Shown here: positions 6,930 to 20,312 of the stretch, one piece after another | Position numbering within the stretch: position 1 is the stretch's first letter | How the letters are laid out: each line of letters starts with the position of its first letter | NCBI RefSeq assembly: GCF_900101335.1 | Contig: NZ_FNKA01000001.1 | Span: 744,001-808,000, forward strand | Reading direction: 5' to 3' | Length of the DNA stretch: 64,000 nucleotides | Origin: Quadrisphaera sp. DSM 44207 | GTDB lineage: Bacteria; Actinomycetota; Actinomycetes; Actinomycetales; Quadrisphaeraceae | Position numbers and translations under genes: made by a program | The notes under the pieces: generated by a model | Database searches by the model: none | The model's input: the letters and a program-made list of their open reading frames with translations, nothing else | What the model was told of the DNA's origin: nothing

Positions 6930-7291
6930 CGCGCGACCCCGGAGGCGCGCACCTCGCGCACGATGCGCCGCTCGACGACGAAGGAGAGCACCGGGACGAC
7001 GCCGGCGAGCACCAGGGCGACGAAGCGGCCGAACGGCCAGCGCAGCTTCGACCACAGGTCGAACACGGTGACCAGGTACACCACGTACACCCAGCCGTGC
7101 GCGATCGCGACCAGGTCCCCCGCCCAGGCCCGCCCGCCCAGGAGCCCGTACTTCACGGCCATCTCCGCCACGAGCAGCAGCAGCATCACGCCGGTCACCC
7201 AGGCCATGACGCGGTAGCGGGCCAGGGCCGGGCCGACGCTGCGGCGCACCGCCCCGGCGGGACGGCGGGACCTGTCCTGGACGGAGCTCAC
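6926..7291 (-). CDS. DUF3817 small membrane protein
   Basis: A 121-aa protein with three hydrophobic segments ([17 protein letters not shown], an [17 protein letters not shown] region, and [18 protein letters not shown]). This matches DUF3817, a family of unknown function found in actinobacteria next to guaA. The GTG start overlaps the SURF1 stop by four nucleotides (GTGA), and its own stop overlaps the guaA start the same way. The three genes are therefore probably translationally coupled. Family membership is secure; the function is not known. Confidence 0.88.
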
Positions 7292-8106
7292 CGGCCGGCC
7301 TCCTGGGTCTGCTCGACGACCTGCTGGTCGACCTGCTCGTGGCGCACCGGCCCATCCTCCCAGGTCCCGCCGACGGCGCCGTCCTCCTCGGCGCGCTCCT
7401 CCTGCTCGCCCCGGTGCCGCTCGCGCACCGCGCGCCACCACAGGAACACCGCGAAGGCGGCGAAGAGCCACCACTGCAGCGCGTAGGAGACGTTGCGCAG
7501 GTCCACCTCCGGCTCGGGGGCGGCGCTGGGCACGGCGGCCAGCGGCGCGGGCGCCTCCTCCTGCACGACGTAGCCCGTGTGCAGCGGCGGCTGCCAGACG
7601 TTGACGAGGTCCGCGGAGCTGACGGCGCTCAGCGCCGGGGCGCCGTCCGCGCCGGGCGCGACCCCGGCGGGCGGCTCGCCGGGCTGCAGCCGGCCGACCA
7701 CCTCCACCTCGCCGTCCGGCGGGGCGGGCACCGACGCCTCCTGCCCCGCGGCCACCCAGCCGCGCACCACGGGCAGCAGCGCGGTGCCGCCCGCCGCCTG
7801 CACCTGCAGCGGCGCCAGCACCCAGGAGCCCTCCTCGCCGTCGAGGGCGCGACCGGCCACGAGCAGCTGCTCCTCGGGCAGGAACTGCCCGCGGGCGCTC
7901 ACCCGCTGCCCGACCGCCGTCCCGGGGAAGGTCGTCGCGGGAGCCAGCACCTGCGCCAGCGGCAGCACCTGCTCCGCGGTGGACGGCGGGCCCTGCGAGC
8001 GCGAGCGCGCCAGCTGCCAGTCGCCGAGCGCCGCGAACGCCGTCGCGGCCGCCAGCGCCACGGCCAGCAGCAGCAGCGACCAGGGGCGCAGCGCGGTTCG
8101 CAGCAC
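7288..8106 (-). CDS. SURF1 family protein
   Basis: A 272-aa protein with the SURF1 topology: an N-terminal transmembrane helix (residues about 7-27) followed by the diagnostic [11 protein letters not shown], a soluble middle domain, and a C-terminal helix in [20 protein letters not shown] (about 225-243). SURF1 assists cytochrome c oxidase assembly and haem a insertion in the membrane. A charged 35-residue tail follows the last helix. It is first in the SURF1-DUF3817-guaA operon. There is no ribosome binding site, and a TACCGT box sits 6 nt before GTG 8106, suggesting leaderless expression. Confidence 0.88.
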
Positions 8107-8112
8107 GGGCCC

Positions 8113-8118
8113 ACGGTA
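8113..8118 (-). promoter_or_regulatory. -10 box of a probable leaderless SURF1 operon
   Basis: TACCGT on the minus strand ends 6 nt before GTG 8106; no Shine-Dalgarno sequence and no clear -35 were seen. Confidence 0.5.
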
Positions 8119-8142
8119 CGCGGGCGCGCGCTGGCCTCCGGC

Positions 8143-8589
8143 GTGCCCGCTGCGCCGCCGCCGTCGGTGACCGAGCTCCTGGCCGCCCTGCCCGCCCACC
8201 AGCGCGAGCTGTTCGAGCTGCGCGCGGCCCGCTGGTGGCCGGACCTGCGCGCGGGGCTCGGCGCGGTGTACGCGCCGGAGGTGGCCGCGCGGCTGGAGGG
8301 CTCGCTGCTGCACCTGGCGGCCGCCGCCCACGTCGAGCGCGTGACCGCGACCCCGGACCTCGCGCGCCTGAACCTGGTCCGCACGCTGCAGCCGGACCGG
8401 TTCCAGGCCCCGCGGATGCTCGGGTACGCCGCCTGCGCCGACCGGTCCGCGGGCGACCTGGCCGGGGTCGCGCGCAGGATCCCGTACCAGACCGCCGTGG
8501 CCGCCCTCGCGGGCGCAGCGCCCCGCCGCTGGGACGACGGGGCGCTGCGCCTGGACCCCCACCAGGCCCTGTGGCTGGTCAGGCCCTGA
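8143..8589 (+). CDS. Miniature amylosucrase-like protein lacking the catalytic barrel
   Basis: A 148-aa frame. Its first half (LFELRAARWWPDLRAGLGAVY) resembles the helical N-terminal domain of amylosucrases. The middle (PDRFQAPRMLGYAACADR, then GDLAGVARRIPY) resembles the segment that leads into the GH13 (beta/alpha)8 barrel. Directly after RIPY the sequence jumps to GALRLDPHQALWLV, which resembles the extreme C-terminal strand of the same enzymes. About 500 residues, including the whole catalytic barrel, are missing, so sucrose-polymerising activity is not expected. The frame is intact, so it may be a maintained stub or a decaying remnant. The assignment rests on recalled family motifs and needs a profile search. 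GTG 8143 is a tentative start. Confidence 0.55.
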   Translation: MPAAPPPSVTELLAALPAHQRELFELRAARWWPDLRAGLGAVYAPEVAARLEGSLLHLAAAAHVERVTATPDLARLNLVRTLQPDRFQAPRMLGYAACADRSAGDLAGVARRIPYQTAVAALAGAAPRRWDDGALRLDPHQALWLVRP

Positions 8590-8633
8590 CCACCCGTCGA
8601 CCACCCGTGGGTCAGCCGCGGGTCAGCCGTGGG

Positions 8634-10151
8634 TCACTCGTCGTCCTCGTCGACCCAGTCGAGGGTGCGCTGCACGGCCTTGTTCCACTTGCGGTACATC
8701 CTGTCCGCGACGGCGCGGTCCAGGGCCGGCTCCCAGCGCCTGTCCTCGGCCCACTGCTGCGTCAGCTCCGCCTCGTCGCGCCAGAACCCCACGGCGAGCC
8801 CGGCGGCGTAGGCGGCCCCCAGCGCGGTGGTCTCGGCGATCTTCGGGCGCACCACCGGCACGCCGAGGATGTCGGCCTGGAACTGCATCAGCAGCTCGTT
8901 GGCGACCATGCCGCCGTCCACCCGCAGCTCGGTCAGGTCCACCCCGGAGTCCGCGTTCATGGCCTCCAGCACCTCGCGGGTCTGGAACGCCGTGGCCTCC
9001 AGCACCGCGCGGGCGACGTGGCCGCGGTTGACGTAGCGGGTCAGCCCGACCAGCGCGCCGCGGGCGTCGGAGCGCCAGTGGGGGGCGAACAGGCCCGAGA
9101 ACGCCGGCACGAAGTACGCGCCGCCGTTGTCCTCCACCGACCGCGCCACGGCCTCGACCTCCCCGGCGCCGCCGATGACGCGCAGGTTGTCGCGCAGCCA
9201 CTGCACCAGGGAGCCGGTGACGGCGATCGAGCCCTCGAGGGCGTAGACGGGCTTGCGCTCCCCGAGCTGGTAGCAGACCGTCGTCAGCAGCCCGTTCTTG
9301 GAGGCCACCGCCTCCTCCCCGGTGTTGAGCAGCATGAAGTTGCCCGTGCCGTAGGTGTTCTTGGCCATGCCCTTGGTGAAGCAGACCTGCCCGAAGGTGG
9401 CCGCCTGCTGGTCGCCGAGGGACCCGGCGATCTCCACCCCCGCCAGCGCGCCGGCGCGCCGGCCCTCCCCGTAGACCTCGGAGTTGGAGCGGATCTGCGG
9501 CAGCATCGACACCGGGATGCGCATGTCGGCGGCGATGGACTCGTCCCAGGCCAGGGTGCGGTAGTCCATGAGCATGGTGCGCGAGGCGTTGGAGACGTCG
9601 GTCAGGTGCTGCCCGCCCTCGGCCCCGCCGGTCATGTTCCACAGCAGCCAGGAGTCGACGGTCCCCATCAGCAGCTCGCCGCGCTCGGCGCGCTCGCGGG
9701 CGCCGTCGACGTTGTCGAGGATCCACGTCACCTTCGGGCCGGCGAAGTAGGTCGCCAGCGGCAGGCCGACCCTGTCCTTGTACCGGTCCGGGCCCCCGCC
9801 CAGCTCCCCGAGCTCGGTGACGATCCGGTCGGTGCGGGTGTCCTGCCAGACGATGGCGTTGTAGACCGGCTGCCCCGTGGCCCTGTCCCACACCACGGCG
9901 GTCTCGCGCTGGTTCGTCAGGCCCACGGCCACCAGGTCCGAGGCGACCAGGTCGGCGCGCGCCAGGGCCTGCCCGACGACCTCGCGGGTGTTGCCCCAGA
10001 TCTCCAGCGGGTCGTGCTCGACCCACCCCGCGCGGGGGAAGATCTGCTGGTGCTCCTTCTGGCCCACGGCCGCCACGGAGCCGGAGTGGTCGAAGACCAT
10101 GCAGCGGGTGCTCGTGGTGCCCTGGTCGATCGCGGCGATGAAGTCGGCCAC
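8634..10151 (-). CDS. glpK: Glycerol kinase
   Basis: Phosphorylates glycerol with ATP to sn-glycerol 3-phosphate, the committed step of glycerol use. The 505 aa are a standard-length FGGY kinase. Signatures are the N-terminal [16 protein letters not shown], the substrate region [21 protein letters not shown], and [16 protein letters not shown] near the C-terminus. AGGAGG precedes the ATG. It lies downstream of glpF on the same strand and divergent from glpD, giving a complete uptake, kinase and dehydrogenase set. The C-terminus ends in an acidic VDEDDE. Confidence 0.97.
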
Positions 10152-18250: not shown

Positions 18251-18565
18251 GTGGCTGAGATCTCTCGGCTCCCCGGGCCCGTGGCCGACGTCTGGGAGTG
18301 GCAGCTGCAAGGCGCGTGCCGCGAGCACGACACCAACCTGTTCTTCCACCCCGAGGGCGAGCGCGGCCCGGCGCGGCGCAACCGCGACGCCGCTGCCGTG
18401 GCCGTGTGCGGGAGCTGCCCGGTGATGGACGAGTGCCGGCGCCACTCCCTCGCGGTGCGCGAGCCGTACGGCGTGTGGGGCGGCCTGACCGAGGACGACC
18501 GCGAGCGCCTCTACGCCGCGCAGCGCGGCGACCGGGGCCTGGAGTCCCTGCCGCGCGCCAGCTGA
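18251..18565 (+). CDS. whiD: WhiB-family regulator, WhiD/WhiB3-like
   Basis: A 104-aa Wbl protein with four iron-sulphur cluster cysteines, C23, C53, C56 and C62 (CGSCPVMDEC). The beta-turn GVWGG (74-78) contacts sigma factor, and a basic C-terminal DNA-binding segment follows. Wbl proteins bind region 4 of the principal sigma factor and respond to oxygen or NO through a [4Fe-4S] cluster. Position beside bldM and groEL matches WhiD of Streptomyces and WhiB3 of mycobacteria. GTG 18251 follows AGGAGG; the frame is open upstream but lacks domain sequence. The 5' leader is about 100 nt from the predicted promoter. Confidence 0.9.
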   Translation: MAEISRLPGPVADVWEWQLQGACREHDTNLFFHPEGERGPARRNRDAAAVAVCGSCPVMDECRRHSLAVREPYGVWGGLTEDDRERLYAAQRGDRGLESLPRAS

Positions 18566-18586
18566 CCCGCCGCACCACCCGCACGA

Positions 18587-18628
18587 CGGCGAAGGCCCTC
18601 GGACCCGCAGGTCCGGGGGCCTTCGCCG
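18587..18628. terminator. Bidirectional terminator between whiD and groEL
   Basis: 19-nt arms (18587-18605 and 18610-18628) pair with one G-U-type mismatch around a 4-nt CGCA loop, between the convergent whiD and groEL stops. Confidence 0.8.
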
Positions 18629-18677
18629 TGCTCCAGCGGCTCGGGAGCCGCTCAGCGGCCCAGGAGGGCCAGGAGGC

Positions 18678-20312
<1,635 letters not shown>

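What the first reader, a model, noticed from the sequence alone, without database searches (positions are those of the whole stretch)
8143..8589. Amylosucrase-like micro-gene with the catalytic barrel removed in frame
A 148-aa intact frame joins an amylosucrase-type N-terminal domain and barrel-entry segment (PDRFQAPRMLGY ... RIPY) directly to a typical C-terminal ending (ALRLDPHQALWLV). The roughly 500-residue GH13 barrel is missing. The join keeps the frame. It could be a clean deletion remnant or a retained regulatory or carbohydrate-binding stub.
Basis: partly seen in the sequence, partly recalled or inferred. Interest (0 to 1): 0.62.

Follow-up and report, generated by a model that had tools for sequence, protein, structure and literature searches.

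The report
Decaying remnant of an amylosucrase gene
A sugar-polymer enzyme gene (amylosucrase) has lost its whole catalytic core here, and the two leftover ends look like an ordinary dead gene fragment rather than a new small protein.

Summary
The 148-aa frame at 8143-8589 (+) consists of an amylosucrase (GH13_4-type) N-terminal segment (residues 9-115, 64% identical to the closest full-length relative) joined in frame to the last ~29 residues of the same enzyme (59%). Relative to that gene, 494 codons (1,482 nt), the whole catalytic barrel, are missing. Best explanation: a deletion remnant, i.e. a pseudogene. Of 77 other genomes of the order with a match, none has such a stub: 76 have an uninterrupted long frame, one a frameshifted long copy. 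Three of 16 residues invariant in 30 relatives are broken (D77N, W86R, Y98C), and a position always F/Y is Ser (102). No Shine-Dalgarno motif was found, whereas glpK, glpF and glpD have one. The intact frame means little at 76% GC: 42% of 148-codon stretches in the window's six frames are open. Branch dN/dS is 0.38 (background 0.10), not distinguishable from 1. The fragment lies between glpK and SURF1, which are directly adjacent in two relatives; the relatives' amylosucrases lie elsewhere. The genome has no second match to the amylosucrase N-terminal segment. A retained small protein is not excluded but has no positive support.

The parts
8143..8589 (+). amylosucrase remnant, 148-aa open frame including stop (possible GTG starts 8143 or 8167)
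8167..8487 (+). amylosucrase N-terminal helical domain and barrel-entry segment (stub residues 9-115)
   Evidence: 63.6% identical to G002 18406-18726; PDB amylosucrases E down to 8e-15
8488..8493 (+). deletion junction (codons Q116-T117); 494 codons absent relative to G002
8494..8580 (+). amylosucrase C-terminal end (stub residues 118-146)
   Evidence: 58.6% identical to G002 20215-20301, E 7e-5
7288..8106 (-). SURF1 family gene, divergent neighbour
   Evidence: Pfam PF02104, E 1e-27; start codon GTG at 8106
8634..10151 (-). glycerol kinase glpK, convergent neighbour
   Evidence: sequence and conserved glpD-glpF-glpK order

Best explanation
A GH13_4-type amylosucrase gene once lay, antisense to glpK and SURF1, in the variable slot between them. 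A deletion of about 1.48 kb fused the barrel-entry segment to the last ~30 codons, in frame by chance (one in three), removing all catalytic parts. The remnant carries changes at invariant positions, has no visible translation signal, and is a pseudogene with no product of consequence. Shown: homology of both ends, size and frame of the gap, uniqueness in the genomes searched, broken invariant residues, absence of an SD motif. Inferred: that a full-length ancestor stood at this site, that one event made the deletion, and that there is no function.
For: Homology and collinearity of both ends. All other matches in the order are long frames or, once, a frameshifted long copy. D77N, W86R, Y98C at columns invariant in 30 relatives, F/Y to S at 102. 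No SD motif at either GTG, unlike glpK, glpF, glpD. Terminal branch 0.50 against 0.22 for the sister G002; branch omega 0.38 compatible with 1. Open frames are common by chance at this GC.
Against: No stop codon or frameshift, third-position GC still 98.6% as in working genes, and 13 of 16 invariant residues remain, so decay is recent or slow. Omega on the branch is also not significantly above background (2 dlnL 3.04).
Confidence: 0.9

Rival explanations
1. A retained small protein: the N-terminal helical domain was kept after the deletion as a regulatory, dimerising or glucan-binding stub.
For: Frame intact, GC3 98.6%; helices 9-81 modelled, with pLDDT about 70-90 for residues 10-70; omega 0.38 not proven equal to 1.
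Against: Unique among 396 genomes of the order; invariant residues broken; no SD motif; no promoter-like site; residues 81-148 without reliable fold; open frames are common by chance here.
Confidence: 0.05
2. An assembly or sequencing deletion: the organism has a full-length amylosucrase here and the assembly lost the barrel.
For: Nearly all relatives with the gene are full length; reads were not available.
Against: The site is inside a 1.28-Mb contig of a 4-contig genome; no exact repeat of 9 nt or more joins the two breakpoint regions in G002, so a repeat collapse is not suggested; signs of decay lie outside the gap.
Confidence: 0.05

Closest known systems
Amylosucrase (EC 2.4.1.4, GH13 subfamily 4), e.g. 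PDB 7esh, 4ays, 3ucq
   Same: N-terminal helical domain, barrel-entry motif and C-terminal end are recognisable and collinear
   Different: The whole catalytic barrel (494 codons relative to G002) is absent, so it cannot be an enzyme of this family
Deletion pseudogenes (gene remnants) of bacterial genomes
   Same: Found in one genome only, both gene ends left, changes at invariant sites, no translation signal
   Different: Happens to remain in frame and open, as expected one time in three and helped by 76% GC

Membership tests
Amylosucrase (GH13_4) | Sequence homology in N- and C-terminal parts | tested here: met
Amylosucrase (GH13_4) | GH13 catalytic barrel with its catalytic residues | tested here: not met
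   No PF00128 match in the stub against E 1e-35 in G002; 494 codons absent
Pseudogene (deletion remnant) | Large loss relative to intact homologues | tested here: met
Pseudogene (deletion remnant) | Relaxed constraint | tested here: inconclusive
   Invariant residues broken; omega 0.38, neither background nor 1 rejected
Pseudogene (deletion remnant) | No expressed product | not testable with these tools
   Needs RNA-seq, ribosome profiling or proteomics; only indirect signs here (no SD motif; no promoter-like site)

The most novel reading that the evidence does not exclude
The stub is translated and kept as a stand-alone helical N-domain protein with a function of its own, which I know of no precedent for among amylosucrases.
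Probability: 0.05. Interest if true: 0.4.

Novelty: new member of a known kind. Interest (0 to 1): 0.1.

Why it matters
Little beyond annotation: an automatic annotator could call it a small protein or 'amylosucrase', crediting the organism with a sucrose-to-glucan activity that this fragment cannot supply. It also shows that intact frames at 76% GC are poor evidence of function.

Tried and rejected
Pfam and NCBIfam scans of the 148 aa gave no family (a sub-threshold Sigma70_r4_2 match, E 0.086, was dismissed). The genome-contig scan found one further relative, a full-length gene in a MAG labelled Myxococcaceae. The genus holds no other genome. Relatives with a full-length gene at the same place: tested, not found; glpK and SURF1 are adjacent in G001 and G007, and elsewhere the slot holds other DNA or was not resolved by the contigs, while amylosucrase lies on other contigs. 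The gene divergent from the G002 amylosucrase (DUF222/HNH) gave only a weak match in this genome and no hint of where the window's copy came from. Repeats at the breakpoints: none of 9 nt or more in G002. Single-sequence structure model: mean pLDDT 54, not carried into a fold search. Literature search for amylosucrase with pseudogene: nothing relevant by title or abstract.

Full report
What is there. The + strand frame 8143-8589 translates to 148 aa without a stop. phmmer against PDB sequences returns amylosucrases first, best E 8e-15, over residues 17-117 of the frame and residues 26-121 of the chain; in three of the four alignments shown the last residues of the frame also align, weakly, at the C-terminal end of the chain. 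Against the closest full-length relative found, in genome G002 of the same family, residues 9-115 align at 63.6% and residues 118-146 at 58.6%, collinear and in one frame, with 1,488 nt between them there and 6 nt here. So 1,482 nt, 494 codons, are missing. At the DNA level the left side matches G002 exactly over the 13 nt AGGATCCCGTACC and then breaks off.

Is it more than chance? The homology is. The open frame by itself is not: at 76% GC, 42% of all 148-codon stretches in the six frames of the window have no stop, and only 28 of 1,332 single-base changes in the stub would make one. The same frame stays open antisense through SURF1 back to 7339.

Relatives. In the family, 10 of the other 12 genomes have a match, all in long frames of 667-829 aa. 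Of 396 genomes of the order, 78 have a match including this one; this is the only match that covers both halves in one stretch. Of the other 77, 76 have a frame of at least 600 aa; G118, with a 298-aa frame, is a frameshifted long copy, and a second weak match in G013 (187-aa frame) gave no amylosucrase signal with the G002 protein. The stub groups with G002 (support 0.79) on a branch more than twice as long as that of G002, and shares with it a three-residue insertion absent from the other sequences aligned (RVTATPD / RVVETPD).

Place. The family keeps glpD-glpF-glpK and SURF1-DUF3817-guaA, with glpK directly next to SURF1 in G001 and G007 and 3.8-13.6 kb from it in five others. In this window the slot holds only the remnant, antisense to both neighbours. 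The amylosucrases of the relatives lie elsewhere, and none of 19 order-level amylosucrase loci has these genes within 1.5 kb. How the gene came to this slot is not known.

Constraint. Of 16 columns invariant in the 30 full-length relatives, the stub breaks three: D77N, W86R and Y98C; G002 breaks none, and the most for any relative in a leave-one-out count is two of 18. Position 102, F or Y in all relatives aligned, is S. A codon model on 107 codons and 16 sequences (own script, MG94-type, F3x4) gives omega 0.38 on the stub branch against 0.10 elsewhere; neither equality with background (2 dlnL 3.04) nor neutrality (2 dlnL 0.83) is rejected. The branch includes any time before the deletion, so the test has little power.

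Signals. Neither GTG (8143, 8167) has a Shine-Dalgarno motif, while glpK, glpF and glpD do; SURF1 has none either. No promoter-like or terminator-like site was found in 7900-8800, though that sigma-70 scan is expected to fit high-GC actinobacteria-like promoters poorly. The SURF1 start at 8106 is 36 nt from the first GTG, leaving little room for a separate promoter.

Structure. A single-sequence AlphaFold2 model has mean pLDDT 54: helices within residues 9-81, mostly 70-90 over residues 10-70, nothing reliable from 81 on. This fits the leftover N-terminal helical domain of an amylosucrase and says nothing for a function.

Verdict. An ordinary deletion remnant of an amylosucrase gene. The genome has no second match to the amylosucrase N-terminal segment; it has other GH13 genes, which were not assigned to subfamilies. 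That the organism lacks amylosucrase activity is therefore likely, not proven.

Noticed in passing
8107-8633, between SURF1 and glpK: The glpK-SURF1 gap is a variable slot in this family: 0.04-0.11 kb in two relatives, 3.8-13.6 kb in five others, and here it holds only the amylosucrase remnant.
   Followed up: partly
L002, 5833-7893: A MAG contig labelled Myxococcaceae carries a full-length amylosucrase 53% identical to the stub's N-part, about as close as those of the window's own family; the label may be wrong or the gene transferred.
   Followed up: no
L112, 999-2643 (genome G118): A long amylosucrase copy broken by a frameshift, so decay of this gene occurs elsewhere in the order; or a sequencing error.
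   Followed up: no
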